NCBI GenBank assembly: GCA_037893245.1
Contig: JBAIAA010000320.1
Span: forward strand, 62,001 to 126,000
Length of the DNA: 64,000 bases
Direction: 5' to 3'
From: Crossaster papposus
Taxonomy: Eukaryota > Echinodermata > Asteroidea > Velatida > Solasteridae
Shown here: positions 1 through 64,000 of the stretch, one piece after another
Position numbering within the stretch: the first letter of the stretch is position 1
Layout: each line of letters begins with the position of its first letter
The notes under the pieces: model-generated
Database searches by the model: none
What the model saw: the letters and a program-made list of their open reading frames with translations, nothing else
What the model was told of the DNA's origin: nothing
Translations under genes and position numbers: made by a program

Positions 1-4
1 AAAA

Positions 5-90
5 CACTTTTCGGTTTTTTTCACCGTCAGAACGCGAAATGAACTTCCAACACTCCCAAATGGTCTATAGCGCCCTTTGAGCCTGACAAA
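5..90. repeat. Representative T-class monomer, 86 bp
   Basis: This type example carries CACTTTTC, then GG and a T7 tract, CACCGTCAG, AACGCG, AAATGAAC, the short form TTCCAACACTCCC, and TATAGCGCCCTTTGAGCC. The short form lacks one base relative to TTACAAACAATCCC of the P class, which makes the monomer 86 bp instead of 87 and shifts any reading frame. T-class subtypes differ after CACCGT: CAGAACGCG, AAGAAAGCG, AAGACCGCG, AATAAAGCC or CAGATCACG. They also differ before the T-run: CGG, CTG, CGGG, CGGA or CG. Confidence 0.9.
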
Positions 91-692
91 CACTTTTCAG
101 CACTATTCACCGTCAGATCACGAAATGAACTCACAAACAATCCCAAATGTGCTATAGCGCCCATTGAGCCTATACAAAAACTTTTCGTTTTTTTCAACGT
201 CAGAACGCGAAGTGAACTTCCAACACTCCTAAATGGTCTATAGCGCACATTAAGCCCAACAAACACTTTTCAGCACTATTCACCGTCAGATCACGAAATG
301 AACTTACAAACAATCCCAAATGTGCTATATAGCCCATTAAGCCTAACAAACACTTTTCAGCACTATTCACCGTCAGATCACGAAATGGACTTACAAACAC
401 TCCCAAATGGTCTATAGCGCCCATTGAGCCTAAAAAAATACTTTTCAGCACTATTCACCGTCAGATCACGAAATGAACTTACAAACAATCCCAAATGGTC
501 TATAGCGTCCATTGAGCCTAACAAACACTTTTCGGCACTATTCACCCTCAGATCACGAAATGGACTTACAAACACTCCCAAATGGTCTATAGCGCCCATT
601 GAGCCTAAAAAACACTTTTCGGGTTTTTTCACCGTAAGACCGCGAAATGAACGTCCAACACTCCCAAATGGTCTACAGCGCCCATTGAGCCT

Positions 693-702
693 AAAAAAAA
701 AA
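693..702. repeat. Expanded A-run replacing the AAAAAACACTTTTC joint (type site)
   Basis: Here the usual A6-CAC-TTTT joint between monomers has collapsed to A10 followed by TTCGGA. The same altered joint recurs at about 11,366, 12,926, 15,704, 28,279, 34,095, 40,601, 49,980, 53,190, 55,531, 57,091 and 60,564, always beside the same monomer type. The A count varies between copies (9, 10 or 11), so the site serves as a lineage marker within the array. Confidence 0.85.
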
Positions 703-3038
703 TTCGGATTTTTTCACCGTCAGAACGCGAAATGAACTTCGAACACTCCTAAATGGTCTATAGCGCCCATTAAGCCCAACAAACACTTTTCAGCACTATT
801 CACCGTCAGATCACGAAATCAACTTACAAACAATCCCAAATGGTCTATAGCGCCCATTGAGCCTAAACAAAAACTTTTCGTTTTTTTCAACGTCAGAACG
901 CGAAGTGAACTTCTAACACTCCCAAATGGTCTATAAGCGCCCATTAAGCCTGACAAACACTTTTCAGCACTATTCACCCTCAGATCACGAAATTGACTTA
1001 CAAACACTCCCAAATTGTCTATAGCGCCCATTGAGCCTAACAAACACTTTTCGGCACTATTCACCCTTAGATCACGAAATGGACTTACAAACACTCCAAA
1101 ATGGTCTATAGCGCCCTTTGAGCCTAAAAAACACTTTTCGGGTTTTTTCACCGTCAGAACGCGAAATGAACTTCTAACACTCCCAAATGGTCTATAAGCG
1201 CCCATTAAGCCTAACAAACACTTTTCAGCACTATTCATCGTCAGATCACGAAATGAACTCACAAACAATCCCAAATGTGCCATAGAGCCCATTAAGCCTA
1301 AAAAACACTTTTCAGCACTATTCAACGTCAGATCACGAAATGGACTTACAAACACTTCCAAATGGTCTATAGCGCCCATTGAGCCTAAAAAACACTTTTC
1401 GGGTTTTTTCACCGTAAGACCGCGAAATGAACGTCCAACACTCCCAAATTGGCTACAGCGCCCATTGAGCCTAAAAAACACTTTTCGGATTTTTTCACCG
1501 TCAGAACGCGAAATGAACTTCCAACACTCCTAAATGGTCTATAGCGCCCATTAAGCCCAACAAACACTTTTCAGCACTATTCACCGTCAGATCACGAAAT
1601 GAACTTACAAACAATACCAAATGTGCTATAGAGCCCATTAAGCCTAACAAACACTTTTCAGCACTATTCACCGTCAGATTACGAAATGAACTCACAAACA
1701 ATCCCAAATGTGCTATAGCGCCCATTAAGCCTAACAAATACTTTTCGGCACTATTCACCGTCAGATCACGAAATGGACTTACAAACACTCCCAAATGGTC
1801 TACAGCGCCCATTGAGGCTAAAAAACACTTTTCGGTTTTTTTCACCGTAAGAAAGCAAAATGAACGTCCAACACTCCCAAATGGTCTATAGCGCCCTTTG
1901 AGCCTAAAAAACACTTTTCGGATTTTTTCACCGTCAGATCACGAAACGAACTCACAAACAATCCCAAATGTGCTATAGCGCCCATTAAGCCTAACAAACA
2001 CTTTTCGGCACTATTCACCGTCAGGTCACGAAATGGACTTACAAACACTCCCAAATGGTCTATAGCGCCCTTTGAGCCTAAAAAACACTTTTCGTTTTTT
2101 TCACCGTATGAAAGCGAAATGAACGTCCAACACTCCCAAATGGTCTTTAGCGCCCTTTGAGCCTAAAAAACACTTTTCTGTTTTTTTCACCGTCAGATCA
2201 CGAAACGAACTCACAAACAATCCCAAATGTGCTATAGCGCCCATTAAGCCTAACAAATACTTTTCAGCACTATTCACCGTCAGATCACGAAATGAACTTA
2301 CAAACAATCCCAAATGGTCTATAGCGTCCATTGAGCCTAACAAACACTTTTCGGCACTATTCACCGTCAGATCACGAAATGAACTCACAAACAATCCCAA
2401 ATGTGCCATAGAGCCCATTAAGCCTAAAAAACACTTTTCAGCACTATTCAACGTCAGATCACGAAATGAACTTACAAACAATCCCAAATGGTCTATAGCG
2501 CCCATTGAGCCTAACAAACACTTTTCGGCACTATTCACCGTCAGATCACGAAATGGACTTACAAACACTCCCAAATGGTCTATAGCGCCCATTGAGCCTA
2601 AAAAACACTTTTCGGGTTTTTTCACCGTAAGACCGCGAAATGAACGTCCAACACTCCCAAATTGGCTACAGCGCCCATTGAGCCTAAAAAACACTTTTCG
2701 GATTTTTTCACCGTCAGAACGCGAAATGAACTTCCAACACTCCTAAATGGTCTATAGCGCCCATTAAGCCCAACAAACACTTTTCAGCACTATTCACCGT
2801 CAGATCACGAAATGAACTTACAAACAATACCAAATGTGCTATAGAGCCCATTAAGCCTAACAAACACTTTTCAGCACTATTCACCGTCAGATTACGAAAT
2901 GAACTCACAAACAATCCCAAATGTGCTATAGCGCCCATTAAGCCTAACAAATACTTTTCGGCACTATTCACCGTCAGATCACGAAATGGACTTACAAACA
3001 CTCCCAAATGGTCTACAGCGCCCATTGAGGCTAAAAAA

Positions 3039-3900
3039 CACTTTTCGGTTTTTTTCACCGTAAGAAAGCGAAATGAACGTCCAACACTCCCAAATGGTCT
3101 ATAGCGCCCTTTGAGCCTAAAAAACACTTTTCTGTTTTTTTCACCGTCAGATCACGAAACGAACTCACAAACAATCCCAAATGTGCTATAGCGCCCATTA
3201 AGCCTAACAAACACTTTTCGGCACTATTCACCGTCAGGTCACGAAATGGACTTACAAACACTCCCAAATGGTCTATAGCGCCCTTTGAGCCTAAAAAACA
3301 CTTTTCGTTTTTTTCACCGTATGAAAGCGAAATGAACGTCCAACACTCCCAAATGGTCTTTAGCGCCCTTTGAGCCTAAAAAACACTTTTCTGTTTTTTT
3401 CACCGTCAGATCACGAAACGAACTCACAAACAATCCCAAATGTGCTATAGCGCCCATTAAGCCTAACAAACACTTTTCGGCACTATTCACCGTCAGATCA
3501 CGAAATGGACTTACAAACACTCCCAAATGGTCTATTAGCGCCCTTTGAGCCTAAAAAAACACTTTTCGGTTTTTTTCACCGTAAGAAAGCGAAATGAACG
3601 TCCAACACTCCCAAATGGTCTATAGCGCCCTTTGAGCCTAAAAAACACTTTTCTGTTTTTTTCACCGTCAGATCACGAAACGAACTCACAAACAATCCCA
3701 AATGTGCTATAGCGCCCATTAAGCCTAACAAACACTTTTCGGCACTATTCACCGTCAGGTCACGAAATGGACTTACAAACACTCCCAAATGGTCTATAGC
3801 GCCCTTTGAGCCTAAAAAACACTTTTCGTTTTTTTCACCGTAAGAAAGCGAAATGAACGTCCAACACTCCCAAATGGTCTTTAGCGCCCTTTGAGCATAA
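3039..3900. repeat. Three-monomer (259-262 bp) sub-repeat array
   Basis: A trimer is repeated about three times. It consists of a T-class monomer with AAGAAAGCG or ATGAAAGCG, then a CTGTTTTTTT monomer with CGAAACGAACTCAC, then a P-class monomer usually carrying CAGGTCACG. The trimer period is 259-262 bp depending on one G and one A in homopolymer-adjacent positions. A near-identical array is at about 18,137-19,000 in block H1 copy B. Confidence 0.85.
3299..3383. repeat. Representative short T-class monomer, 85 bp
   Basis: This subtype has CTTTTCG directly followed by the T-run (one G fewer than usual) and the short GTCCAACACTCCC form, giving 85 bp. It carries the CACCGTATGAAAGCG variant and GGTCTTTAGCG, which destroys the CTATAG palindrome. 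It is one leg of the 3-monomer sub-repeat that recurs across the window. Confidence 0.85.
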
Positions 3901-4946
3901 AAAACACTTTTCGGTTTTTTTCACCGTCAGAACGCGAAATGAACTTCCAACACTCCCAAATGGTCTATAGCGCCCTTTGAGCCTAAAAAACACTTTTCTG
4001 TTTTTTTCACCGTCAGATCACGAAATGAACTTACAAACAATCCCAAATGTGCTATAGAGCCCATTAAGCCTAAAAAACACTTTTCAGCACTATTCACCGT
4101 CAGATCACGAAATGAACTTACAAACAATCCCAAATGGTCTATAGCGCCCATTGAGCCTAAACAAAAACTTTTCGTTTTTTTCAACGTCAGAACGCGAAGT
4201 GAACTTCTAACACTCCCAAATGGTCTATAAGCGCCCATTAAGCCTGACAAACACTTTTCAGCACTATTCACCCTCAGATCACGAAATTGACTTACAAACA
4301 CTCCCAAATTGTCTATAGCGCCCATTGAGCCTAACAAACACTTTTCGGCACTATTCACCGTCAGATCACGAAATGGACTTACAAACACTCCCAAATGGTC
4401 TATAGCGCCCTTTGAGCCTAAAAAACACTTTTCGGTTTTTTTCACCGTCAGAACGCGAAATGAACTTCTAACACTCCCAAATGGTCTATAAGCGCCCATT
4501 AAGCCTAACAAACACTTTTCAGCACTATTCACCGTCAGATCACGAAATGAACTCACAAACAATCCCAAATGTGCCATAGAGCCCATTAAGCCTAAAAAAC
4601 ACTTTTCAGCACTATTCACCGTCAGATTACGAAATGAACTCACAAACAATCCCAAATGTGCCATAGAGCCCATTAAGCCTAAAAAACACTTTTCAGCACT
4701 ATTCAACGTCAGATCACGAAATGGACTTACAAACACTCCCAAATGGTCTACAGCGCCCATTGAGGCTAAAAAACACTTTTCGGTTTTTTTCACCGTAAGA
4801 AAGCGAAATGAACGTCCAACACTCCCAAATGGTCTTTAGCGCCCTTTGAGCCTAAAAAAAAAATTTCTGTTTTGTTCACCGTCAGATCACGAAACGAACT
4901 CACAAACAATCCCAAATGTGCTATAGCGCCCATTAAGCCTAACAAA

Positions 4947-5033
4947 CACTTTTCGGCACTATTCACCGTCAGATCACGAAATGAACTCACAAACAATCCC
5001 AAATGTGCTATAGCGCCCATTAAGCCTAACAAA
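4947..5033. repeat. Representative P-class monomer, 87 bp
   Basis: This is a clean example of the commonest 87-bp type. CACTTTTC is followed by GGCACTATTCACCGTCAG, ATCACG, AAATGAAC, the long form TCACAAACAATCCC, and GTGCTATAGCGCCCATTAAG with TAACAAA at the end. The neighbouring copy begins exactly 87 bp later at 5,034. Subtypes have CAG instead of CGG before CACTATT, GGACTTAC instead of GAACTCAC, GGTC instead of GTGC, and TTTGAG or ATTGAG instead of ATTAAG. The monomer has four CpG sites and the 8-bp palindrome GCTATAGC. Confidence 0.9.
5007..5014. other. GCTATAGC palindrome in P-class monomer (type site)
   Basis: This 8-bp perfect palindrome lies in the GTGCTATAGCGCCC block and is present in many P-class monomers. 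GGTCTATAGCG monomers keep the inner 6-bp CTATAG. It is broken in subtypes with GTGCCATAGAG, GGTCTTTAG, GGTCTACAG and TATAAGCG. In GGTC monomers with CCATT it lies between the short inverted arms AATGG and CCATT. Confidence 0.6.
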
Positions 5034-5201
5034 CACTTTTCGGCACTATTCACCGTCAGATCACGAAATGAACTCACAAACAATCCCAAATGTGCTATAG
5101 CGCCCATTAAGCCTAACACACACTTTTCGGCACTATTCACCGTCAGATCACGAAATGGACTTACAAACACTCCCAAATGGTCTATAGCGCCCTTTGAGCC
5201 T

Positions 5202-5223
5202 AAAAAACACTTTTCGGTTTTTT
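5202..5223. other. A6C / GT6 inverted repeat at the monomer joint (type site)
   Basis: AAAAAAC (5,202-5,208) and GTTTTTT (5,217-5,223) are perfect 7-bp arms around the 8-nt loop ACTTTTCG. The arrangement recurs at most joints leading into T-class monomers. It could extrude as a small hairpin and would also give intrinsically bent or stiff DNA about once per T-class monomer. P-class monomers replace the right arm with GCACTATT and lack it. Any function is inference. Confidence 0.6.
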
Positions 5224-5294
5224 TCACCGTCAGAACGCGAAATGAACTTCTAACACTCCCAAATGGTCTATAAGCGCCCATTAAGCCTAACAAA
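5208..5294. repeat. Representative length-compensated T-class monomer, 87 bp
   Basis: This T-class monomer has the one-base-shorter form CTTCTAACACTCCC but also an extra A in TATAAGCG about 20 bp downstream, so it is restored to 87 bp. The same TTCTAAC plus TATAAGCG pair occurs together in dozens of copies, for example near 912-933, 1,171-1,196, 9,500-9,523 and 51,151-51,178. On the minus strand the pair produces a short local frame change, after which the long 29-codon frame resumes. Confidence 0.85.
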
Positions 5295-5860
5295 CACTTT
5301 GCAGCACTATTCACCGTCAGATCACAAAATGAACTCACAAACAATCCCAAATGTGCTATAGCGCCCATTAAGCCTAACAAACACTTTTCGGCACTATTCA
5401 CCGTCAGATCACGAAATGGACTTACAAACACTCCCAAATGGTCTATAGCGCCCTTTGAGCCTAAAAAACACTTTTCGGTTTTTTTCACGGTCAGAACGCG
5501 AAATGAACTTACAAACAATCCCAAATGTGCTATAGAGCCCATTAAGCCTAAAAAACACTTTTCAGCACTATTCACCGTCAGATCACGAAATGAACTTACA
5601 AACAATCCCAAATGGTCTATAGCGCCCATTGAGCCTAAACAAAAACTTTTCGTTTTTTTTCAACGTCAGAACGCGAAGTGAACTTCTAACGCTCCCAAAT
5701 GGTCTATAAGCGCCCATTAAGCCTGACAAACACTTTTCAGCACTATTCACCCTCAGATCACGAAATTGACTTACAAACACTCCCAAATTGTCTATAGCGC
5801 CCTTTGAGCCTGACAAACACTTTTCAGCACTATTCACCGTCAGATCACGAAATGGACTTA

Positions 5861-7469: not shown

Positions 7470-9198
7470 CACTTTTCGGTTTTTTTCACCGTAAGAAAGC
7501 GAAATGAACGTCCAACACTCCCAAATGGTCTATAGCGCCCTTTGAGCCTAAAAAACACTTTTCTGTTTTTTTCACCGTCAGATCACGAAACGAACTCACA
7601 AACAATCCCAAATGTGCTATAGCGCCCATTAAGCCTAACAAACACTTTTCGGCACTATTCACCGTCAGGTCACGAAATGGACTTACAAACACTCCCAAAT
7701 GGTCTATAGCGCCCTTTGAGCCTAAAAAACACTTTTCGTTTTTTTCACCGTATGAAAGCGAAATGAACGTCCAACACTCCCAAATGGTCTTTAGCGCCCT
7801 TTGAGCCTAAAAAACACTTTTCTGTTTTTTTCACCGTCAGATCACGAAACGAACTCACAAACAATCCCAAATGTGCTATAGCGCCCATTAAGCCTAACAA
7901 ACACTTTTGGCACTATTCACCGTCAGGTCACGAAATGGACTTACAAACACTCCCAAATGGTCTATAGCGCCCTTTGAGCCTAAAAAACACTTTTCGTTTT
8001 TTTCACCGTATGAAAGCGAAATGAACGTCCAACACTCCCAAATGGTCTTTAGCGCTCTTTGAGCCTAAAAAACACTTTTCTGTTTTTTTCACCGTCAGAT
8101 CACGAAACGAACTCACAAACAATCCCAAATGTGCTATAGCGCCCATTAAGCCTAACAAACACTTTTCGGCACTATTCACCGTCAGATCACGAAATGGACT
8201 TACAAACACTCCCAAATGGTCTATAGCGCCCTTTGAGCCTAAAAAAACACTTTTCGGTTTTTTTCACCGTAAGAAAGCGAAATGAACGTCCAACACTCCC
8301 AAATGGTCTATAGCGCCCTTTGAGCCTAAAAAACACTTTTCTGTTTTTTTCACCGTCAGATCACGAAACGAACTCACAAACAATCCCAAATGTGCTATAG
8401 CGCCCATTAAGCCTAACAAACACTTTTCGGCACTATTCACCGTCAGGTCACGAAATGGACTTACAAACACTCCCAAATGGTCTATAGCGCCCTTTGAGCC
8501 TAAAAAACACTTTTCGTTTTTTTCACCGTAAGAAAGCGAAATGAACGTCCAACACTCCCAAATGGTCTTTAGCGCTCTTTGAGCCTAAAAAACACTTTTC
8601 GGTTTTTTTCACCGTATGAAAGCGAAATGAACGTCCAACACTCCCAAATGGTCTTTAGCGCCCTTTGAGCCTAAAAAACACTTTTCTGTTTTTTTCACCG
8701 TCAGATCACGAAACGAACTCACAAACAATCCCAAATGTGCTATAGCGCCCATTAAGCCTAACAAACACTTTTCGGCACTATTCACCGTCAGATCACGAAA
8801 TGGACTTACAAACACTCCCAAATGGTCTATAGCGCCCTTTGAGCCTAAAAAAACACTTTTCGGTTTTTTTCACCGTAAGAAAGCGAAATGAACGTCCAAC
8901 ACTCCCAAATGGTCTATAGCGCCCTTTGAGCCTAAAAAACACTTTTCTGTTTTTTTCACCGTCAGATCACGAAACGAACTCACAAACAATCCCAAATGTG
9001 CTATAGCGCCCATTAAGCCTAACAAACACTTTTCGGCACTATTCACCGTCAGGTCACGAAATGGACTTACAAACACTCCCAAATGGTCTATAGCGCCCTT
9101 TGAGCCTAAAAAACACTTTTCGTTTTTTTCACCGTAAGAAAGCGAAATGAACGTCCAACACTCCCAAATGGTCTTTAGCGCCCTTTGAGCCTAAAAAA
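7470..9198. repeat. Three-monomer sub-repeat array, longest example (~6 trimers)
   Basis: The same trimer as at 3.0-3.9 kb runs here for about six units, with one extra single T-class monomer near 8,508-8,594, where the spacing becomes 345 bp instead of about 260 bp. One copy has lost a C (CTTTTGGCACTATT at about 7,906), also present in the partner array at about 22,217. The partner array at about 21,783-23,510 has the same order, including the extra monomer. Shorter trimer runs recur at about 33.5-34.0, 39.3-40.2, 48.7-49.5, 52.1-52.8, 54.4-55.1, 56.3-56.7 and 59.4-60.1 kb. Confidence 0.85.
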
Positions 9199-12100
9199 CA
9201 CTTTTCGGTTTTTTTCACCGTCAGAACGCGAAATGAACTTCCAACACTCCCAAATGGTCTAATAGCGCCCTTTGAGCCTAAAAAACACTTTTCTGTTTTT
9301 TTCACCGTCAGATCACGAAATGAACTTACAAACAATCCCAAATGTGCTATAGAGCCCATTAAGCCTAAAAAACACTTTTCAGCACTATTCACCGTCAGAT
9401 CACGAAATGAACTTACAAACAATCCCAAATGGTCTATAGCGCCCATTGAGCCTAAACAAAAACTTTTCGTTTTTTTCAACGTCAGAACGCGAAGTGAACT
9501 TCTAACACTCCCAAATGGTCTATAAGCGCCCATTAAGCCTGACAAACACTTTTCAGCACTATTCACCCTCAGATCACGAAATTGACTTACAAACACTCCC
9601 AAATTGTCTATAGCGCCCATTGAGCCTAACAAACACTTTTCGGCACTATTCACCGTCAGATCACGAAATGGACTTACAAACACTCCCAAATGGTCTATAG
9701 CGCCCTTTGAGCCTAAAAAACACTTTTCGGTTTTTTTCACCGTCAGAACGCGAAATGAACTTCTAACACTCCCAAATGGTCTATAAGCGCCCATTAAGCC
9801 TAACAAACACTTTTCAGCACTACTCACCGTCAGATCACGAAATGAACTCACAAACAATCCCAAATGTGCCATAGAGCCCATTAAGCCTAAAAAACACTTT
9901 TCAGCACTATTCAACGTCAGATCACGAAATGAACTTACAAACAATCCCAAATGGTCTATAGCGCCCATTGAGCCTAAAAAAATACTTTTCAGCACTATTC
10001 ACCGTCAGATCACGAAATGAACTTACAAACAATCCCAAATGGTCTATAGCGTCCATTGAGCCTAACAAACACTTTTCGGCACTATTCACCGTCAGATCAC
10101 GAAATGGACTTACAAACACTCCCAAATGGTCTACAGCGCCCATTGAGCCTAAAAAACACTTTTCGGATTTTTTCACCGTCAGAACGCGAAATGAACTTCC
10201 AACACTCCTAAATGGTCTATAGCGCCCATTAAGCCCAACAAACACTTTTCAGCGCTATTCACCGTCAGATCACGAAATCAACTTACAAACAATCCCAAAT
10301 GTGCTATAGAGCCCATTAAGCCTAACAAACACTTTTCAGCACTATTCACCGTCAGATTACGAAATGAACTCACAAACAATCCCAAATGTGCTATAGCGCC
10401 CATTAAGCCTAACAAATACTTTTCGGCACTATTCACCGTCAGATCACGAAATGGACTTACAAACACTCCCAAATGGTCTACAGCGCCCATTGAGGCTAAA
10501 AAACACTTTTCGGTTTTTTTTCACCGTAAGAAAGCGAAATGAACGTCCAACACTCCCAAATGGTCTTTAGCGCCCTTTGAGCCTAAAAAACACTTTTCGG
10601 TTTTTTTCACCTTCAGATCACGAAACGAACTCACAAACAATCCCAAATGTGCTATAGCGCCCTTTGAGCCTAAAAAACACTTTTCGGTTTTTTTCACCGT
10701 CAGAACGCGAAATGAACTTCCAACACTCCCAAATGGTCTATAGCGCCCTTTGATCCTGACAAACACTTTTCAGCACTATTCACCGTCAGATCACGAAATG
10801 AACTCACAAACAATCCCAAATGTGCTATAGCGCCCATTGAGCCTATACAAAAACTTTTCGTTTTTTTCAACGTCAGAACGCGAAGTGAACTTCCAACACT
10901 CCTAAATGGTCTATAGCGCACATTAAGCCCAACAAACACTTTTCAGCACTATTCACCGTCAGATCACGAAATGAACTTACAAACAATCCCAAATGTGCTA
11001 TATAGCCCATTAAGCCTAACAAACACTTTTCAGCACTATTCACCGTCAGATCACGAAATGGACTTACAAACACTCCCAAATGGTCTATAGCGCCCATTGA
11101 GCCTAAAAAAATACTTTTCAGCACTATTCACCGTCAGATCACGAAATGAACTTACAAACAATCCCAAATGGTCTATAGCGTCCATTGAGCCTAACAAACA
11201 CTTTTCGGCACTATTCACCCTCAGATCACGAAATGGACTTACAAACACTCCCAAATGGTCTATAGCGCCCATTGAGCCTAAAAAACACTTTTCGGGTTTT
11301 TTCACCGTAAGACCGCGAAATGAACGTCCAACACTCCCAAATGGTCTACAGCGCCCATTGAGCCTAAAAAAAAATTTCGGATTTTTTCACCGTCAGAACG
11401 CGAAATGAACTTCGAACACTCCTAAATGGTCTATAGCGCCCATTAAGCCCAACAAACACTTTTCAGCACTATTCACCGTCAGATCACGAAATCAACTTAC
11501 AAACAATCCCAAATGTGCTATAGAGCCCATTAAGCCTAACAAACACTTTTCAGCACTATTCACCGTCAGATTACGAAATGAACTCACAAACAATCCCAAA
11601 TGTGCTATAGCGCCCATTAAGCCTAACAAATACTTTTCGGCACTATTCACCGTCAGATCACGAAATGGACTTACAAACACTCCCAAATGGTCTACAGCGC
11701 CCATTGAGGCTAAAAAACACTTTTCGGTTTTTTTCACCGTAAGAAAGCGAAATGAACGTCCAACACTCCCAAATGGTCTTTAGCGCCCTTTGAGCCTAAA
11801 AAACACTTTTCTGTTTTGTTCACCGTCAGATCACGAAACGAACTCACAAACAATCCCAAATGTGCTATAGCGCCCATTAAGCCTAACAAACACTTTTCGG
11901 CACTATTCACCGTCAGATCACGAAATGGACTTACAAACACTCCCAAATGGTCTATAGCGCCCTTTAAGCCTAAAAAACACTTTTCGGTTTTTTTCACCGT
12001 CAGAACGCGAAATGAACTTCCAACACTCCCAAATGGTCTACAGCGCCCATTGAGGCAAAAAAACACTTTTCGGTTTTTTTCACCGTAATAAAGCCAAATG

Positions 12101-12398
12101 AACGTCCAACACTCCCAAATGGTCTATAGCGCCCTTTGAGCCTAAAAAACACTTTTCTGTTTTTTTCATCGTCAGATCACGAAACGAACTTACAAACAAT
12201 CCCAAATGTGCTATAGAGCCCATTAAGCCTAACAAACACTTTTCAGCACTATTCACCGTCAGATCACGAAATGAACTCACAAACAATGCCAAATGTGCTA
12301 TAGCGCCCATTAAGCCTAACAAACACTTTTCGGCACTATTCACCGTCAGATCACGAAATGAACTCACAAACAATCCCAAATGTGCTATAGCGCCCATT
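9130..12398. repeat. Duplicated segment H2, copy A (~3.27 kb)
   Basis: This segment matches about 26,048-29,316 at a constant offset of 16,918. Shared rare variants include GGTCTAATAGCG (about 9,258 and 26,176), CAGCACTACTCACC (about 9,830 and 26,748) and CAGCGCTATTC (about 10,250 and 27,168). A variant seen here but not in the partner is TTTGATCCTGAC at about 10,750. Homology stops at about 12,398, where this copy has CATTGAGCCTATAC and the partner has CATTAAGCCTAACACAC. Confidence 0.85.
10778..12338. repeat. Tandem duplication of 1,560/1,561-bp period, unit 1 (18 monomers)
   Basis: Positions match those 1,560 bp downstream, switching to 1,561 bp after an A-run that has 9 A here (at 11,366) and 10 A in the second unit (at 12,926). 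Both units contain CTATACAAAAAC, GCTATATAGCCC, the TCAACTTAC monomer, CTGTTTTGTTCACC and CACCGTAATAAAGCC. The period equals 18 monomers. The corresponding stretch in copy B of H2 (about 27.7-29.3 kb) is single. Confidence 0.85.
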
Positions 12399-13899
12399 GA
12401 GCCTATACAAAAACTTTTCGTTTTTTTCAACGTCAGAACGCGAAGTGAACTTCCAACACTCCTAAATGGTCTATAGCGCACATTAAGCCCAACAAACACT
12501 TTTCAGCACTATTCACCGTCAGATCACGAAATGAACTTACAAACAATCCCAAATGTGCTATATAGCCCATTAAGCCTAACAAACACTTTTCAGCACTATT
12601 CACCGTCAGATCACGAAATGGACTTACAAACACTCCCAAATGGTCTATAGCGCCCATTGAGCCTAAAAAAATACTTTTCAGCACTATTCACCGTCAGATC
12701 ACGAAATGAACTTACAAACAATCCCAAATGGTCTATAGCGTCCATTGAGCCTAACAAACACTTTTCGGCACTATTCACCCTCAGATCACGAAATGGACTT
12801 ACAAACACTCCCAAATGGTCTATAGCGCCCATTGAGCCTAAAAAACACTTTTCGGGTTTTTTCACCGTAAGACCGCGAAATGAACGTCCAACACTCCCAA
12901 ATGGTCTACAGCGCCCATTGAGCCTAAAAAAAAAATTTCGGATTTTTTCACCGTCAGAACGCGAAATGAACTTCGAACACTCCTAAATGGTCTATAGCGC
13001 CCATTAAGCCCAACAAACACTTTTCAGCACTATTCACCGTCAGATCACGAAATCAACTTACAAACAATCCCAAATGTGCTATAGAGCCCATTAAGCCTAA
13101 CAAACACTTTTCAGCACTATTCACCGTCAGATTACGAAATGAACTCACAAACAATCCCAAATGTGCTATAGCGCCCATTAAGCCTAACAAATACTTTTCG
13201 GCACTATTCACCGTCAGATCACGAAATGGACTTACAAACACTCCCAAATGGTCTACAGCGCCCATTGAGGCTAAAAAACACTTTTCGGTTTTTTTCACCG
13301 TAAGAAAGCGAAATGAACGTCCAACACTCCCAAATGGTCTTTAGCGCCCTTTGAGCCTAAAAAACACTTTTCTGTTTTGTTCACCGTCAGATCACGAAAC
13401 GAACTCACAAACAATCCCAAATGTGCTATAGCGCCCATTAAGCCTAACAAACACTTTTCGGCACTATTCACCGTCAGATCACGAAATGGACTTACAAACA
13501 CTCCCAAATGGTCTATAGCGCCCTTTAAGCCTAAAAAACACTTTTCGGTTTTTTTCACCGTCAGAACGCGAAATGAACTTCCAACACTCCCAAATGGTCT
13601 ACAGCGCCCATTGAGGCAAAAAAACACTTTTCGGTTTTTTTCACCGTAATAAAGCCAAATGAACGTCCAACACTCCCAAATGGTCTATAGCGCCCTTTGA
13701 GCCTAAAAAACACTTTTCTGTTTTTTTCATCGTCAGATCACGAAACGAACTTACAAACAATCCCAAATGTGCTATAGAGCCCATTAAGCCTAACAAACAC
13801 TTTTCAGCACTATTCACCGTCAGATCACGAAATGAACTCACAAACAATGCCAAATGTGCTATAGCGCCCATTAAGCCTAACAAACACTTTTCGGCACTA
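12339..13899. repeat. Tandem duplication of 1,560/1,561-bp period, unit 2
   Basis: This is the downstream unit of the pair starting at about 10,778. Beyond about 13,960 the array follows a different path, and about 13,215-14,662 matches 24,926-26,373 (offset 11,711), including GGTCTATACCGCCC. So the right part of this unit overlaps two different duplications, as expected if exchanges have repeatedly cut across older ones. Confidence 0.8.
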
Positions 13900-41361: not shown

Positions 41362-41439
41362 TACAGCGCCCATTGAGGCAAAAAAACACTTTTCGGTTTT
41401 TTTCACCGTAATAAAGCCAAATGAACGTCCAACACTCCC

Positions 41440-51394: not shown

Positions 51395-53735
51395 GTCAGA
51401 TCACGAAATGAACTTACAAACAATCCCAAATGTGCTATAGAGCCCATTAAGCCTAAAAAACACTTTTCAGCACTATTCACCGTCAGATCACGAAATGAAC
51501 TTACAAACAATCCCAAATGGTCTATAGCGTCCATTGAGCCTAACAAACACTTTTCGGCACTATTCACGGTCAGATCACGAAATGGACTTACAAACACTCC
51601 CAAATGGTCTATAGCGCCCATTGAGCCTAAAAAACACTTTTCGGTTTTTTTCACCGTAAGACCGCGAAATGAACGTCCAACACTCCCAAATTGGCTACAG
51701 CGCCCATTGAGCCTAAAAAACACTTTTCGGATTTTTTCACCGTCAGAACGCGAAATGAACTTCCAACACTCCTAAATGGTCTATAGCGCCCATTAAGCCC
51801 AACAAACACTTTTCAGCACTATTCACCGTCAGATCACGAAATGAACTTACAAACAATACCAAATGTGCTATAGAGCCCATTAAGCCTAACAAACACTTTT
51901 CAGCACTATTCACCGTCAGATTACGAAATGAACTCACAAACAATCCCAAATGTGCTATAGCGCCCATTAAGCCTAACAAATACTTTTCGGCACTATTCAC
52001 CGTCAGATCACGAAATGGACTTACAAACACTCCCAAATGGTCTACAGCGCCCATTGAGGCTAAAAAACACTTTTCGGTTTTTTTCACCGTAAGAAAGCGA
52101 AATGAACGTCCAACACTCCCAAATGGTCTATAGCGCCCTTTGAGCCTAAAAAACACTTTTCTGTTTTTTTCACCGTCAGATCACGAAACGAACTCACAAA
52201 CAATCCCAAATGTGCTATAGCGCCCATTAAGCCTAACAAACACTTTTCGGCACTATTCACCGTCAGGTCACGAAATGGACTTACAAACACTCCCAAATGG
52301 TCTATAGCGCCCTTTGAGCCTAAAAAACACTTTTCGTTTTTTTCACCGTAAGAAAGCGAAATGAACGTCCAACACTCCCAAATGGTCTTTAGCGCCCTTT
52401 GAGCCTAAAAAACACTTTTCTGTTTTTTTCACCGTCAGATCACAAAACGAACTCACAAACAATCCCAAATGTGCTATAGCGCCCATTAAGCCTAACAAAC
52501 ACTTTTCGGCACTATTCACCGTCAGATCACGAAATGGACTTACAAACACTCCCAAATGGTCTATAGCGCCCTTTGAGCCTAAAAAAAACACTTTTCGGTT
52601 TTTTTCACCGTAAGAAAGCGAAATGAACGTCCAACACTCCCAAATGGTCTATAGCGCCCTTTGAGCCTAAAAAAACACTTTTCGTTTTTTTCACCGTAAG
52701 AAAGCGAAATGAACGTCCAACACTCCCAAATGGTCTTTAGCGCCCTTTGAGCCTAAAAAACACTTTTCAGCACTATTCACCGTCAGATCACGAAATGAAC
52801 TCACAAACAATCCCAAATGTGCCATAGAGCCCATTAAGCCTAAAAAACACTTTTCAGCACTATTCAACGTCAGATCACGAAATGAACTTACAAACAATCC
52901 CAAATGGTTTATAGCGCCCATTGAGCCTAAAAAAATACTTTTCAGCACTATTCACCGTCAGATCACGAAATCAACTTACAAACAATCCCAAATGGTCTAT
53001 AGCGTCCATTGAGCCTAACAAACACTTTTCGGCACTATTCACCCTCAGATCACGAAATGGACTTACAAACACTCCCAAATGGTCTATAGCGCCCATTGAG
53101 CCTAAAAAACACTTTTCGGGTTTTTTCACCGTAAGACCGCGAAATGAACGTCCAACACTCCCAAATGGTCTACAGCGCCCATTGAGCCTAAAAAAAAAAA
53201 TTCGGATTTTTTCACCGTCAGAACGCGAAATGAACTTCGAACACTCCTAAATGGTCTATAGCGCCCATTAAGCCCAACAAACACTTTTCAGGACTATTCA
53301 CCGTCAGATCACGAAATCAACTTACAAACAATCCCAAATGTGCTATAGAGCCCATTAAGCCTAACAAACACTTTTCAGCACTATTCACCGTCAGATTACG
53401 AAATGAACTCACAAACAATCCCAAATGTGCTATAGCGCCCATTAAGCCTAACAAACACTTTTCAGCACTATTCACCGTCAGATCACGAAATGGACTTACA
53501 AACACTCCCAAATGGTCTGTAGCGCCCATTGAGCCTAAAAAACACTTTTCGGGTTTTTTCACCGTAAGACCGCGAAATGAACGTCCAACACTCCCAAATT
53601 GGCTACAGCGCCCATTGAGCCTAAAAAACACTTTTCGGATTTTTTCACCGTCAGAACGCGAAATGAACTTCCAACACTCCTAAATGGTCTATAGCGCCCA
53701 TTAAGCCCAACAAACACTTTTCAGCGCTATTCACC
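51395..53735. repeat. 2,341-bp (27-monomer) HOR unit, copy 1
   Basis: This unit matches the next 2,341 bp, sharing CACGGTCAGATCACG (about 51,566 and 53,907), the 52.1 and 54.4 kb trimer runs, the 11-A run and GGTCTGTAGCG (about 53,516 and 55,857). Differences are GATCACAAAACG here (about 52,440) and an AAAAAACCAC insertion in the next copy (about 54,925). Confidence 0.83.
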
Positions 53736-56076
53736 GTCAGATCACGAAATGAACTTACAAACAATCCCAAATGTGCTATAGAGCCCATTAAGCCTAAAAA
53801 ACACTTTTCAGCACTATTCACCGTCAGATCACGAAATGAACTTACAAACAATCCCAAATGGTCTATAGCGTCCATTGAGCCTAACAAACACTTTTCGGCA
53901 CTATTCACGGTCAGATCACGAAATGGACTTACAAACACTCCCAAATGGTCTATAGCGCCCATTGAGCCTAAAAAACACTTTTCGGTTTTTTTCACCGTAA
54001 GACCGCGAAATGAACGTCCAACACTCCCAAATTGGCTACAGCGCCCATTGAGCCTAAAAAACACTTTTCGGATTTTTTCACCGTCAGAACGCGAAATGAA
54101 CTTCCAACACTCCTAAATGGTCTATAGCGCCCATTAAGCCCAACAAACACTTTTCAGCACTATTCACCGTCAGATCACGAAATGAACTTACAAACAATAC
54201 CAAATGTGCTATAGAGCCCATTAAGCCTAACAAACACTTTTCAGCACTATTCACCGTCAGATTACGAAATGAACTCACAAACAATCCCAAATGTGCTATA
54301 GCGCCCATTAAGCCTAACAAATACTTTTCGGCACTATTCACCGTCAGATCACGAAATGGACTTACAAACACTCCCAAATGGTCTACAGCGCCCATTGAGG
54401 CTAAAAAACACTTTTCGGTTTTTTTCACCGTAAGAAAGCGAAATGAACGTCCAACACTCCCAAATGGTCTATAGCGCCCTTTGAGCCTAAAAAACACTTT
54501 TCTGTTTTTTTCACCGTCAGATCACGAAACGAACTCACAAACAATCCCAAATGTGCTATAGCGCCCATTAAGCCTAACAAACACTTTTCGGCACTATTCA
54601 CCGTCAGGTCACGAAATGGACTTACAAACACTCCCAAATGGTCTATAGCGCCCTTTGAGCCTAAAAAACACTTTTCGTTTTTTTCACCGTAAGAAAGCGA
54701 AATGAACGTCCAACACTCCCAAATGGTCTTTAGCGCCCTTTGAGCCTAAAAAACACTTTTCTGTTTTTTTCACCGTCAGATCACGAAACGAACTCACAAA
54801 CAATCCCAAATGTGCTATAGCGCCCATTAAGCCTAACAAACACTTTTCGGCACTATTCACCGTCAGATCACGAAATGGACTTACAAACACTCCCAAATGG
54901 TCTATAGCGCCCTTTGAGCCTAAAAAAACCACTTTTCGGTTTTTTTCACCGTAAGAAAGCGAAATGAACGTCCAACACTCCCAAATGGTCTATAGCGCCC
55001 TTTGAGCCTAAAAAAACACTTTTCGTTTTTTTCACCGTAAGAAAGCGAAATGAACGTCCAACACTCCCAAATGGTCTTTAGCGCCCTTTGAGCCTAAAAA
55101 ACACTTTTCAGCACTATTCACCGTCAGATCACGAAATGAACTCACAAACAATCCCAAATGTGCCATAGAGCCCATTAAGCCTAAAAAACACTTTTCAGCA
55201 CTATTCAACGTCAGATCACGAAATGAACTTACAAACAATCCCAAATGGTTTATAGCGCCCATTGAGCCTAAAAAAATACTTTTCAGCACTATTCACCGTC
55301 AGATCACGAAATCAACTTACAAACAATCCCAAATGGTCTATAGCGTCCATTGAGCCTAACAAACACTTTTCGGCACTATTCACCCTCAGATCACGAAATG
55401 GACTTACAAACACTCCCAAATGGTCTATAGCGCCCATTGAGCCTAAAAAACACTTTTCGGGTTTTTTCACCGTAAGACCGCGAAATGAACTTCCAACACT
55501 CCCAAATGGTCTACAGCGCCCATTGAGCCTAAAAAAAAAAATTCGGATTTTTTCACCGTCAGAACGCGAAATGAACTTCGAACACTCCTAAATGGTCTAT
55601 AGCGCCCATTAAGCCCAACAAACACTTTTCAGGACTATTCACCGTCAGATCACGAAATCAACTTACAAACAATCCCAAATGTGCTATAGAGCCCATTAAG
55701 CCTAACAAACACTTTTCAGCACTATTCACCGTCAGATTACGAAATGAACTCACAAACAATCCCAAATGTGCTATAGCGCCCATTAAGCCTAACAAACACT
55801 TTTCAGCACTATTCACCGTCAGATCACGAAATGGACTTACAAACACTCCCAAATGGTCTGTAGCGCCCATTGAGCCTAAAAAACACTTTTCGGGTTTTTT
55901 CACCGTAAGACCGCGAAATGAACGTCCAACACTCCCAAATTGGCTACAGCGCCCATTGAGCCTAAAAAACACTTTTCGGATTTTTTCACCGTCAGAACGC
56001 GAAATGAACTTCCAACACTCCTAAATGGTCTATAGCGCCCATTAAGCCCAACAAACACTTTTCAGCACTATTCACC
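53736..56076. repeat. 2,341-bp (27-monomer) HOR unit, copy 2
   Basis: This is the second unit of the 27-monomer pair. It has the extra C in AAAAAACCAC at about 54,925-54,932 and GAACTTCCAAC at about 55,487 in place of GAACGTCCAAC. At its right end the array begins a third, shortened version (from about 55,992), which lacks four monomers (348 bp). Confidence 0.82.
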
Positions 56077-57629
56077 GTCAGATCACGAAATGAACTTACA
56101 AACAATACCAAATGTGCTATAGAGCCCATTAAGCCTAACAAACACTTTTCAGCACTATTCACCGTCAGATTACGAAATGAACTCACAAACAATCCCAAAT
56201 GTGCTATAGCGCCCATTAAGCCTAACAAATACTTTTCGGCACTATTCACCGTCAGATCACGAAATGGACTTACAAACACTCCCAAATGGTCTACAGCGCC
56301 CATTGAGGCTAAAAAACACTTTTCGGTTTTTTTCACCGTAAGAAAGCGAAATGAACGTCCAACACTCCCAAATGGTCTATAGCGCCCTTTGAGCCTAAAA
56401 AACACTTTTCTGTTTTTTTCACCGTCAGATCACGAAACGAACTCACAAACAATCCCAAATGTGCTATAGCGCCCATTAAGCCTAACAAACACTTTTCGGC
56501 ACTATTCACCGTCAGGTCACGAAATGGACTTACAAACACTCCCAAATGGTCTATAGCGCCCTTTGAGCCTAAAAAACACTTTTCGTTTTTTTCACCGTAA
56601 GAAAGCGAAATGAACGTCCAACACTCCCAAATGGTCTTTAGCGCCCTTTGAGCCTAAAAAACACTTTTCAGCACTATTCACCGTCAGATCACGAAATGAA
56701 CTCACAAACAATCCCAAATGTGCCATAGAGCCCATTAAGCCTAAAAAACACTTTTCAGCACTATTCAACGTCAGATCACGAAATGAACTTACAAACAATC
56801 CCAAATGGTTTATAGCGCCCATTGAGCCTAAAAAAATACTTTTCAGCACTATTCACCGTCAGATCACGAAATCAACTTACAAACAATCCCAAATGGTCTA
56901 TAGCGTCCATTGAGCCTAACAAACACTTTTCGGCACTATTCACCCTCAGATCACGAAATGGACTTACAAACACTCCCAAATGGTCTATAGCGCCCATTGA
57001 GCCTAAAAAACACTTTTCGGGTTTTTTCACCGTAAGACCGCGAAATGAACGTCCAACACTCCCAAATGGTCTACAGCGCCCATTGAGCCTAAAAAAAAAA
57101 ATTCGGATTTTTTCACCGTCAGAACGCGAAATGAACTTCGAACACTCCTAAATGGTCTATAGCGCCCATTAAGCCCAGCAAACACTTTTCAGCACTATTC
57201 ACCGTCAGATCACGAAATCAACTTACAAACAATCCCAAATGTGCTATAGAGCCCATTAAGCCTAACAAACACTTTTCAGCACTATTCACCGTCAGATTAC
57301 GAAATGAACTCACAAACAATCCCAAATGTGCTATAGCGCCCATTAAGCCTAACAAACATTTTTCAGCACTATTCACCGTCAGATCACGAAATGGACTTAC
57401 AAACACTCCCAAATGGTCTATAGCGCCCTTTGAGCCTAAAAAACACTTTTCGGTTTTTTTCACCGTCAGAACGCGAAATGAACTTCCAACACTCCCAAAT
57501 GGTCTACAGCGCCCATTGAGGCTAAAAAACACTTTTCGGTTTTTTTCACCGTAATAAAGCCAAATGAACGTCCAACACTCCCAAATGGTCTATAGCGCCC
57601 TTTGAGCCTAAAAAACACTTTTCGGTTTT

Positions 57630-60900: not shown

Positions 60901-62939
60901 CTTTGAGCCTAAAAAACACTTTTCGGTTTTTTTCACCGTCAGAACGCGAAATGAACTTCCAACACTCCCAAATGGTCTACAGCGCCCATTGAGGCTAAAA
61001 AACACTTTTCGGTTTTTTTCACCGTAATAAAGCCAAATGAACGTCCAACACTCCCAAATGGTCTATAGCGCCCTTTGAGCCTAAAAAACACTTTTCGGTT
61101 TTTTTCACCGTCAGAACGTGAAATGAACTTACAAACAATCCCAAATGGTCTATAGCGCCCATTGAGCCTAAACAAAAACTTTTCGGCACTATTCACCGTC
61201 AGATCACGAAATGGACTTACAAACACTCATAAATGGTCTATAGCGCCCTTTGAGCCTAAAAAACACTTTTCAGTTTTTTTCACCGTCAGAACGCGAAATG
61301 AACTTCCAACACTCCCAAATGGTCTATAGCGCCCTTTGAGCCTGACAAACACTTTTCAGCACTATTCACCGTCAGATCACGAAATGAACTCACAAACAAT
61401 CCCAAATGTGCTATAGCGCCCATTAAGCCTAACAAACACTTTTCGGCACTATTCACCGTCAGATCACGAAATGGACTTACAAACACTCCCAAATGGTCTA
61501 TAGCGCCCTTTGAGCCTAAAAAACACTTTTCGGTTTTTTTTACCGTCAGAACGCGAAATGAACTTCTAACACTCCCAAATGGTCTATAAGCGCCCATTAA
61601 GCCTAACAAACACTTTTCAGCACTATTCACCGTCAGATCACGAAATTGACTTACAAACACTCCCAAATTGTCTATAGCGCCCATTGAGCCTAAACAAAAA
61701 CTTTTCGTTTTTTTTCAACGTCAGAACGCGAAGTGAACTTCTAACACTCCCAAATGGTCTATAAGCGCCCATTAAGCCTGACAAACACTTTTCAGCACTA
61801 TTCACCGTCACATCACGAAATTGACTTACAAACACTCCCAAATTGTCTATAGCGCCCATTGAGCCTAACAAACACTTTTCGGCACTATTCACCGTCAGAT
61901 CACGAAATGAACTTACAAACACTCCCAAATGGTCTATAGCGCCCTTTGAGCCTAAAAAACACTTTTCGGTTTTTTTCACCGTCAGAACGCGAAATGAACT
62001 TCTAACACTCCCCAATGGTCTATAAGCGCCCATTAAGCCTAACAAACACTTTTCAGCACTATTCACAGTCAGATCACGAAATGAACTCACAAACAATCCC
62101 AAATGTGCTATAGCGCCCATTAAGCCTAACAAACACTTTTCGGCACTATTCACCGTCAGATCACGAAATGGACTTACAAACACTCCCAAATGGTCTATAG
62201 CGCCCTTTGAGCCTAAAAAACACTTTTCGGTTTTTTTCACCGTCAGAACGCGAAATGAACTTCCAACACTCCCAAATGGTCTATAGCGCCCTTTGAGCCT
62301 AAAAAACACTTTTCTGTTTTTTTCACCGTCAGATCACGAAATGAACTTACAAACAATCCCAAATGTGCTATAGAGCCCATTAAGCCTAAAAAACACTTTT
62401 CAGCACTATTCACCGTCAGATCACGAAATGAACTTACAAACAATCCCAAATGGTCTATAGCGCCCATTGAGCCTAAACAAAAACTTTTCGTTTTTTTCAA
62501 CGTCAGAACGCGAAGTGAACTTCTAACACTCCCAAATGGTCTATAAGCGCCCATTAAGCCTGACAAACACTTTTCAGCACTATTCACCCTCACATCACGA
62601 AATTGACTTACAAACACTCCCAAATTGTCTATAGCGCCCATTGAGCCTAACAAACACTTTTCGGCACTATTCACCGTCAGATCACGAAATGGACTTTCAA
62701 ACACTCCCAAATGGTCTATAGCGCCCTTTGAGCCTAAAAAACACTTTTCGGTTTTTTTCACCGTCAGATCACGAAATGAACTTACAAACAATCCCAAATG
62801 TGCTATAGAGCCCATTAAGCCTAAAAAACACTTTTCAGCACTATTCACCGTCAGATCACGAAATGAACTTACAAACAATCCCAAATGGTCTATAGCACCC
62901 ATTGAGCCTAAACAAAAACTTTTCGTTTTTTTTCAACGT

Positions 62940-64000
62940 CAGAACGCGAAATGAACTTCTAACACTCCCAAATGGTCTATAAGCGCCCATTAAGCCTAAC
63001 AAACACTTTTCAGCACTATTCACCGTCAGATCACGAAATGAACTCACAAACAATCCCAAATGTGCCATAGAGCCCATTAAGCCTAAAAAACACTTTTCAG
63101 CACTATTCAACGTCAGATCACGAAATGAACTTACAAACAATCCCAAATGGTCTATAGCGCCCATTGAGCCTAAAAAAATACTTTTCAGCACTATTCACCG
63201 TCAGATCACGAAATGAACTTACAAACAATCCCAAATGGTCTATAGCGTCCATTGAGCCTAACAAACACTTTTCGGCACTATTCACCGTCAGATCACGAAA
63301 TGGACTTACAAACACTCCCAAATGGTCTACAGCGCCCATTGAGCCTAAAAAACACTTTTCGGATTTTTTCACCGTCAGAACGCGAAATGAACTTCCAACA
63401 CTCCTAAATGGTCTATAGCGCCCATTAAGCCCAACAAACACTTTTCAGCGCTATTCACCGTCAGATCACGAAATCAACTTACAAACAATCCCAAATGTGC
63501 TATAGAGCCCATTAAGCCTAACAAACACTTTTCAGCACTATTCACCGTCAGATTACGAAATGAACTCACAAACAATCCCAAATGTGCTATAGCGCCCATT
63601 AAGCCTAACAAATACTTTTCGGCACTATTCACCGTCAGATCACGAAATGGACTTACAAACACTCCCAAATGGTCTACAGCGCCCATTGAGGCTAAAAAAC
63701 ACTTTTCGGTTTTTTTCACCGTAAGAAAGCGAAATGAACGTCCAACACTCCCAAATGGTCTTTAGCGCCCTTTGAGCCTAAAAAACACTTTTCGGTTTTT
63801 TTCACCTTCAGATCACGAAACGAACTCACAAACAATCCCAAATGTGCTATAGCGCCCTTTGAGCCTAAAAAACACTTTTCGTTTTTTTTCACCGTCAGAA
63901 CGCGAAATGAACTTCCAACACTCCCAAATGGTCTATAGCGCCCTTTGAGCCTGACAAACACTTTTCAGCACTATTCACCGTCAGATCACGAAATGAACTC
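62940..64000. repeat. Right-edge segment of the 9.7-10.8 kb type
   Basis: This matches about 9,744-10,805 (offset 53,196, then 53,195) and also 26.7-27.7 kb, sharing CAGCGCTATTC (about 63,446), TCAACTTAC and CACCTTCAG. It shows the array does not end here. The final 128 bp (from 63,873) match positions 5-132 except for one base beside the T-run. Confidence 0.85.

What the first reader, a model, noticed from the sequence alone, without database searches (positions are those of the whole stretch)
1..64000. Uncatalogued-looking ~87-bp satellite filling 64 kb without interruption
Some 735-740 same-strand monomers run across the whole window, with no unique DNA, transposon or inversion seen by eye. 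I do not recognise the monomer as any satellite I know. An array this pure and this long is typical of an actively homogenised core (centromere or large heterochromatic block), because old satellite edges usually collect transposon insertions. The location claim is inference.
Basis: partly seen in the sequence, partly recalled or inferred. Interest (0 to 1): 0.7.

Follow-up and report, generated by a model that had tools for sequence, protein, structure and literature searches.

The report
87-bp satellite with higher-order blocks
The window is a slice of a very large block of repeated DNA in an animal-like genome, built from an 87-letter unit that has been copied again and again in multi-kilobase blocks; this looks like centromere-type heterochromatin, but no chromatin data exist here to prove it.

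Summary
Observation confirmed. The window is one same-strand array: 737 full monomers of 85-89 bp, no insertion, inversion or unique DNA. Neighbouring monomers are only 85.5% alike, but runs of 12-68 monomers recur nearly unchanged, and 666 of 737 monomers lie in such copies (one shuffled order: none). The longest exact repeat is 5,861 bp. It is an irregular higher-order-repeat (HOR) satellite.

The window lies in a 1.02-Gb assembly. The satellite was seen on 32 contigs, 6 of them read and 26 by exact 28-mer hits; roughly 9-19 Mb. Of monomers sampled from C375, C820 and the rest of C320, 87-92% equal a window monomer; from C49, C44 and C2, 1 of 86. So variant pools are array-specific. A second satellite (64/75 bp) adjoins it directly at two junctions and across 301 bp at a third.

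Best reading: centromeric or pericentromeric heterochromatin, homogenised by in-register recombination. The centromere claim is untested, and the order of satellites against other DNA differs between contigs. No listed paper held the monomer; Dfam and Repbase were not available. New member of a known kind.

The parts
1..64000 (+). Satellite A array: 737 full head-to-tail monomers plus a 46-bp partial at the end; consensus AAAACACTTTTCGGCACTATTCACCGTCAGATCACGAAATGAACTTACAAACACTCCCAAATGGTCTATAGCGCCCATTGAGCCTAA
28113..34010 (+). 68-monomer block; duplicated in tandem at 33924-39822 (the two overlap by one monomer; shift 5,811 bp; 2 mismatches, 1 gap; contains the 5,861-bp longest exact repeat)
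33924..39822 (+). second copy of the 68-monomer block; 34269-37132 and 36699-39562 inside it are a 33-monomer near-repeat at a shift of 28 monomers, 99.37% identical
1995..5813 (+). 44-monomer block copied at 17093-20910, 99.87% identical
17093..20910 (+). copy of block 1995-5813
9023..12407 (+). 39-monomer block copied at 25940-29324, 99.79% identical
25940..29324 (+). copy of block 9023-12407
51457..53797 (+). 27-monomer unit, tandem with 53798-56138, 99.79% identical
53798..56138 (+). tandem copy of unit 51457-53797
12408..12492 (+). example of a T-type monomer (TTTTT at consensus columns 15-19; one of the most divergent full monomers, 80% to consensus)

Best explanation
The window is the inside of a large array of an 87-bp satellite, here called A, organised as irregular, cascading higher-order repeats. 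Its monomers differ by 13% on average and fall into 44 clusters; their order is copied in runs of 12-68 monomers (about 1-6 kb) and re-copied. Shown: block copying, strict monomer register, array-specific variant pools in the arrays sampled, spread over many contigs, and junctions with a second satellite B. Inferred: copying is by homologous in-register exchange within an array (unequal sister exchange, gene conversion or break-induced replication), because no truncated monomer occurs anywhere in the window; and C320, C375 and C820 are pieces of one array of about 1.18 Mb (230 + 169 + 786 kb) or allelic copies of it. Inferred from spread, array size, lack of insertions and the neighbouring satellite: it serves as centromeric or pericentromeric heterochromatin, acting through chromatin and not by coding for anything.
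For: One uninterrupted array. Adjacent monomers 85.5% identical vs 86.6% for all pairs, so there is no simple neighbour duplication; but 666 of 737 monomers lie in copies of runs of 12 or more monomers at 2 mismatches or fewer per monomer (74 runs), with 0 such runs and a longest run of 5 in one shuffled order. Longest exact repeat 5,861 bp; seven block pairs 99.37-99.95% identical. 165 distinct sequences among 737 monomers. Monomers equal to a window monomer in the 87 aligned columns (inserted bases not compared): 91.8% of 585 (rest of C320), 87.3% of 482 (C375), 86.9% of 994 (C820), against 1 of 18 (C49), 0 of 25 (C44), 0 of 43 (C2). At 174 bp the C49, C44 and C2 samples share nothing with the window, while the two halves of the window share 0.47. 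Two one-substitution core probes hit 13 and 21 contigs, 5 shared; with the sampled contigs 32 in all. 71,613 exact 14-mer core hits, 1 control hit. Hits of one probe on C266 are 47 monomers apart three times running and 43 apart four times, so long units occur in another array.
Against: No CENP-A, methylation, FISH or Hi-C data: the centromere step is untested. Satellite B has more copies (141,690 exact 34-mer hits; about 31 Mb at the mean density of nine samples, though single samples run from 2 to 8.5 hits per kb) and is an equal or better centromere candidate. On C49 A is not shown to be flanked by B on both sides, whereas on C375 B lies between A and other DNA. CENP-B box core not met. A Chapman estimate of about 50 contigs may exceed the number of chromosomes; C2 holds only an island of less than 80 kb. 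10 of the 32 contigs rest on a single exact 28-mer hit. The rare 31-mer with 54 of 55 hits on C320/C375/C820 was picked because samples of C375 and C820 held it, so that count leans towards the result. Joining C320, C375 and C820 is inference. C49, C44 and C2 were judged on 18, 25 and 43 monomers only.
Confidence: 0.6

Rival explanations
1. A is a non-centromeric heterochromatic satellite (pericentromeric, subtelomeric or a knob); the kinetochore sits on satellite B or on other DNA.
For: B has more copies and abuts A at sequenced junctions on C375 and C49 and across 301 bp on C820. On C49 A, not B, lies nearer to non-satellite DNA in the stretches read.
Against: A has long recent block duplications and array-specific pools, which in human alpha satellite mark the live core (PMC9549924, passages read); this is analogy only. 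B was not examined for the same features.
Confidence: 0.35
2. C320, C375 and C820 share variants because they are alternative haplotypes (unpurged haplotigs) or redundantly assembled copies of one shorter array, so the 1.18-Mb total is inflated.
For: 87-92% of sampled monomers equal a window monomer; C320 is a 169-kb contig that is satellite wherever read.
Against: C820 alone holds A from base 1 to about 786 kb in every stretch read, so the array is large anyway. Sharing of exact 696-bp words with the window is 0-0.48, so the stretches read are not copies of the window.
Confidence: 0.3
3. The block duplications are assembly artefacts (collapsed or mis-stitched repeats).
For: A 5.86-kb exact repeat in tandem is where assemblers err (general knowledge); no reads were available.
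Against: 74 block runs at many different shifts with small scattered differences; similar long spacings recur on C266, 47 and 43 monomers.
Confidence: 0.07
4. The repeat is coding or a transposon-internal tandem.
For: 87 = 3 x 29, so a minus-strand frame stays open for up to 522 aa.
Against: 139 monomers of 86 bp and others shift the frame; 27 scattered ORFs of at least 150 aa, all on the minus strand, none running through the window; no transposon flank in the 115 kb of C320 read.
Confidence: 0.02

Closest known systems
Primate alpha satellite HOR arrays, including cascading HORs (PMC11050224, abstract and section list seen; PMC9549924, passages read)
   Same: Diverged monomer types arranged in multi-monomer units copied nearly unchanged; irregular cascading units; array-specific variant pools; recent duplications; two monomer classes with a short distinguishing box
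   Different: 87-bp monomer in place of 171; no CENP-B box; no sequence comparison made; the box is 5 bp (CACTA/TTTTT) rather than 17 bp; organism not identified; centromere function not shown
HOR centromere satellites of animals and plants at large (Melters et al. 2013, PMC4053949, passages read: clear HOR in 76 of 171 species with Sanger data)
   Same: HOR built on a species-limited monomer; such structure is widespread
   Different: Those Sanger data rarely showed units of three or more monomers; here block copies of 27-68 monomers are read directly
Legume 91-92-bp centromere repeats such as soybean CentGm (recalled, no call)
   Same: Similar short monomer length
   Different: No sequence comparison made; plant, whereas this assembly has a contig whose COX1 reads 13 TGA through, which by general knowledge fits an animal mitochondrion

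Membership tests
Higher-order-repeat satellite (class) | Multi-monomer units far more alike than the monomers inside them | tested here: met
   Neighbours 85.5%; block copies 99.37-99.95%; 666 of 737 monomers in blocks, one shuffled order 0
Higher-order-repeat satellite (class) | Regular single canonical unit repeated through the array (Willard type) | tested here: not met
   Among lags 1-499 the best (67 monomers) matches only 15.4% of monomers at 1 mismatch or fewer vs 3.9% for random pairs; units of different length. Irregular/cascading type instead
Array- or chromosome-specific satellite subfamilies | Variant pools private to an array | tested here: met
   Sharing 87-92% within C320/C375/C820 vs 1 of 86 for C49+C44+C2; 54 of 55 hits of a rare 31-mer on the three contigs, but that probe was picked from samples of them. 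That each array is a chromosome is not tested
Primate alpha satellite | 171-bp monomer | tested here: not met
   87 bp
Primate alpha satellite / CENP-B-dependent satellites | CENP-B box core TTCGNNNNANNCGGG (core recalled) | tested here: not met
   0 matches at 0-1 mismatch; 30 at 2 mismatches vs 131.65 expected by chance
Functional centromere DNA | CENP-A/CENH3 occupancy | not testable with these tools
   no chromatin data
Functional centromere DNA | Present at every chromosome, once each | tested here: inconclusive
   At least 32 contigs, 26 of them by exact 28-mer hits only; contigs are not assigned to chromosomes
Catalogued satellite (Dfam/Repbase) | Match to a library entry | not testable with these tools
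   Libraries not on hand; word searches of the paper library listed only papers on other subjects, or none (not all hits were listed)

The most novel reading that the evidence does not exclude
Satellite A carries its own equivalent of the alpha-satellite A/B box. Two monomer classes, CACTA and TTTTT at columns 15-19, are kept interspersed in one array (window 54:46; T runs of 4 or fewer and C runs of 5 or fewer over the 2,798 monomers of C320/C375/C820, 43 of them unclear and breaking runs). The box would be a binding site for a kinetochore or heterochromatin protein that needs both states within about a nucleosome repeat. That would be an independently evolved two-state centromere code in an animal far from primates.
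Probability: 0.1. Interest if true: 0.65.

Novelty: new member of a known kind. Interest (0 to 1): 0.35.

Why it matters
It gives a long, directly readable HOR array on a short 87-bp monomer in an animal-type genome, with three junctions to a second satellite and several arrays for comparison. That makes models of satellite homogenisation (unequal exchange, break-induced replication) testable outside primates and model plants. If CENP-A maps to it, it adds a centromere in which the two-class box and the array-specific pools can be compared with alpha satellite. As it stands it is an ordinary kind of object with unusually clear anatomy.

Tried and rejected
Rfam and tRNA: nothing. Plasmid and phage records: no blastn match to a 1-kb query. 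A 17-mer scan gave 1 stretch in viral contigs and 10 in bacterial contigs, each with a single match; 0 of these 11 loci gave a blastn hit to 1.5 kb of the array, so they look like chance. Papers: words of A gave 23 papers, all listed, and 52, of which 40 were listed; by titles and abstract starts the listed ones are on other subjects. Shorter words, two required, gave 11 (10 listed); all 10 hold only one word and its own reverse complement. Phrases such as '87-bp satellite' gave 0; words of satellite B gave 0. Topic searches (95, 129 and 9 papers; 20, 20 and 9 listed) served to pick the three papers opened; one listed paper with '87 bp' in its text (PMC8099727, human chromosome 8) was not opened.

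CENP-B box: rejected. DNA hairpin: one dimer folded, z -0.31, rejected. Coding repeat: rejected. Simple core (A) with flanks (B): weakened by C49. The 'live core' argument from purity alone is analogy and was not counted as a test.

Limits of the counts: the block-run control is one shuffle of monomer order, and the lag scan covers lags 1-499. The two classes are defined by columns 16 and 17, so their full separation there is by construction; columns 15 and 19 were not needed for it and separate almost completely too. Interspersion of T and C is not independent evidence, because blocks are copied: among 205 distinct 4-monomer contexts there are 0 T runs vs 9.2 expected and 6 C runs vs 17.4. 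Run lengths over other contigs join separate samples end to end. 165 distinct monomers are counted from raw letters; 155 when inserted bases are dropped. One search left out monomers with fewer than 80 aligned bases, and did not use all A loci held: L012-L019, L087-L091, L098 and L099 were not in it. The 14-mer is found 242 times in the window's raw letters.
Full report
OBSERVATION. The window is one tandem array. TRF reports a single row, 1-63999, period 87, 737.5 copies, 85% matches. My wrap-around alignment cuts it into 737 full monomers and one partial of 46 bp; 515 are 87 bp, 139 are 86, 40 are 88, 38 are 85 and 5 are 89. The least typical full monomer is still 80% identical to the consensus; no monomer has more than 2 inserted or 2 deleted bases, and two core words occur 427 and 391 times on the + strand and 0 times on the - strand. 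Base composition is flat.

Neighbouring monomers are 85.5% identical, no more than any two monomers (86.6%). Yet only 165 distinct sequences occur among the 737, 65 of them once, falling into 44 clusters at single linkage of 1 mismatch or less. Runs of 12 or more consecutive monomers that recur with at most 2 mismatches per monomer number 74 and cover 666 of 737 monomers; in one shuffled order there were 0, and the longest run was 5. The largest is a 68-monomer block at 28113-34010 repeated at 33924-39822 with 2 mismatches and 1 gap; it contains the longest exact repeat, 5,861 bp. Six other pairs are 99.37-99.87% identical. Many lags contribute (67, 418, 174, 247, 28, 20, 39 monomers and more); among lags 1-499 none matches more than 15.4% of monomers at 1 mismatch or less, against 3.9% for random pairs. 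This is an irregular, cascading HOR, not a single canonical unit.

TWO MONOMER CLASSES. I defined classes by columns 16-17: AC in 394 window monomers, TT in 339, 4 unclear. Columns 15 and 19 then separate almost completely as well (CACTA vs TTTTT); columns 1, 13, 32, 34, 42, 47 and 49 follow partly. A third combination, T-type head with C-type tail, is common (91 monomers), which suggests exchange inside monomers. In the C320/C375/C820 samples and the window, T runs do not exceed 4 and C runs do not exceed 5; 1,000 shuffles of the window labels give longest runs of at least 5 and 6 (means 7.9 and 9.7). Because blocks are copied, this is weak evidence. C44 is all C-type by these columns (25 of 25) and C49 mostly T-type (15 of 18).

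WHERE IT LIES. The window is C320:62001-126000 of a 1,023,315,904-bp assembly of 1,841 contigs. C320 is 169,146 bp, and all 5 longer stretches read outside the window, plus the 2 kb just before it, are satellite (one covered to base 9,996 of 10,000). On C375 (3.69 Mb) A was met in every stretch read from base 1 to about 230.5 kb, then satellite B in every stretch to 1.3 Mb, then other DNA at 1.4 Mb. On C820 (1.36 Mb) A, on the other strand, was met in every stretch from base 1 to about 785.9 kb; 301 bp of other DNA follow, then B; a 373-bp satellite was met at 900 kb, and B at 1.0, 1.05 and 1.2 Mb and at the contig end. The A-B junction on C375 is a clean switch inside the word ACGTG (230,515-230,519, counted), which is present in a local A variant (CAGAACGTGAAATG) and in B (GACACGTGGATAT): a 5-bp microhomology, by eye. 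On C49 the B-A switch is at about 276,077; A was met in all 7 further stretches read up to 800 kb, and non-satellite DNA at 1.0 Mb; 800 kb to 1.0 Mb was not read. So the order of A, B and other DNA differs between C375 and C49 unless unread B lies there.

ARRAY-SPECIFIC POOLS. Of the monomers sampled outside the window, 91.8% of 585 (rest of C320), 87.3% of 482 (C375) and 86.9% of 994 (C820) equal a window monomer in the 87 aligned columns, inserted bases not compared; of C49, C44 and C2 it is 1 of 18, 0 of 25 and 0 of 43. The window's own monomers find an equal elsewhere in the window in 91.6%. For exact 174-bp words the shares are 0.36-0.94 in the first group and 0 in the second; the second half of the window shares 0.47 with the first. 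A rare 31-mer has 55 hits genome-wide, 54 of them on C320/C375/C820; it had been picked because samples of C375 and C820 held it, so it confirms rather than tests. The simplest reading is that these three contigs are parts of one array of about 1.18 Mb, or alleles of it; this is inference.

HOW MUCH AND HOW WIDE. A 27-mer has 7,097 exact hits in the genome, 237 of them in the window. A 14-mer core has 71,613 exact hits with 1 control hit: 6.2 Mb at one hit per monomer, 8.6-19.0 Mb at the densities of four sampled array groups, that is 0.6-1.9% of the assembly. Two probes, each with one rare substitution in the core, gave 35 hits on 13 contigs and 95 hits on 21, with 5 contigs shared; with the contigs already sampled the total is 32. 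Six of the 32 were read (C2, C44, C49, C320, C375, C820); 26 rest on exact 28-mer hits, 10 of them on a single hit. Hits of the second probe on C266 fall 47 monomers apart three times in a row and 43 apart four times, so long units exist in another array. Satellite B has 141,690 exact 34-mer hits: 9.1 Mb at one hit per 64 bp, about 31 Mb at the mean density of the nine stretches sampled, whose single densities run from 2 to 8.5 per kb. It has more copies than A and is probably the larger satellite.

HOW IT MOST LIKELY WORKS. Shown: blocks of about 1-6 kb are duplicated, in tandem and at a distance, in strict monomer register, within an array-limited pool. Inferred: the process is homologous exchange between misaligned copies of the same array (sister exchange, conversion or break-induced replication). 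End-joining would leave truncated monomers at block edges; none of the 737 full monomers is shorter than 85 bp. Purity, size, spread over many contigs and the neighbouring megabase satellite suggest centromeric or pericentromeric heterochromatin. The published model for human alpha satellite (PMC9549924, passages) places homogeneous, chromosome-specific HORs in the live core; the resemblance is analogy. The CENP-B box core is absent.

COMPARISON. It works like an alpha-satellite HOR array but is not a member: the monomer is 87 bp and the CENP-B box test fails; sequences were not compared. HOR satellites are common: Melters et al. report clear cases in 76 of 171 species with Sanger data (PMC4053949, passages), and cascading HORs are described in human chromosome 15 (PMC11050224, abstract). 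None of the papers listed by the word searches (23 of 23, 40 of 52, 0 of 0 and 10 of 11) is, by title and abstract start, about such a satellite. Dfam and Repbase were not available, so 'uncatalogued' stays open. The organism was not identified: a COX1 on contig C1841 has 13 TGA read through, which by general knowledge fits an animal mitochondrial code.

VERDICT. Observation confirmed; homogenisation supported and now documented; centromere role plausible but untested, with B as a rival. New member of a known kind; interest 0.35.

Noticed in passing
L039-L043, L053, L055-L057, L098, L099, L108, L109, L113 (C375, C820, C49); C30:554 onward: Satellite B: 64-bp monomer with an about 11-bp-longer 75-bp form (extra GTGTAGATCA-like tail); most copies hold a CACGTG palindrome, by eye; 141,690 exact 34-mer hits; it changes strand along C375 and along C820.
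   Followed up: partly
L054 (C820:900001-902000): Third satellite, 373-bp period, 98% matches, filling the 2 kb read; B was met at 800 kb and 1.0 Mb on either side.
   Followed up: no
C375:230515-230519 (L098): A-to-B switch inside the 5-bp word ACGTG shared by both satellites, with no other DNA between; on C820 a 301-bp stretch of other DNA with a GCTT microsatellite lies between A and B (by eye).
   Followed up: partly
G000:C8:5208663-5210009 and C8:2872001-2873343: COX1 matches with no stop inside on a contig longer than 5.2 Mb: probably the chromosome of a bacterial associate or contaminant in the assembly (the label is inference).
   Followed up: no
G000:C1841:6351-7688: COX1 with 13 TGA codons, probably mitochondrial; could identify the species, but letters could not be read.
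   Followed up: no
C2:421960 to at least 480 kb (L120-L127, L076, L097): An island of diverged A monomers; hits of one probe are 1,383 bp (16 monomers) apart twice; non-A DNA at 420 and 500 kb.
   Followed up: partly
L118 (C2:410001-410200): Reads all N (gap or withheld stretch).
   Followed up: no
window, - strand, e.g. 23441-25009: Open frames up to 522 aa because 87 is 29 codons; broken by monomers of other lengths, no sign of coding.
   Followed up: yes
L104-L107 (C2, 600 kb, 700 kb, end and start): Other short tandem repeats, with a CCATTCCTAGGAATGG palindrome in those at 600 kb, 700 kb and the contig end, by eye.
   Followed up: no
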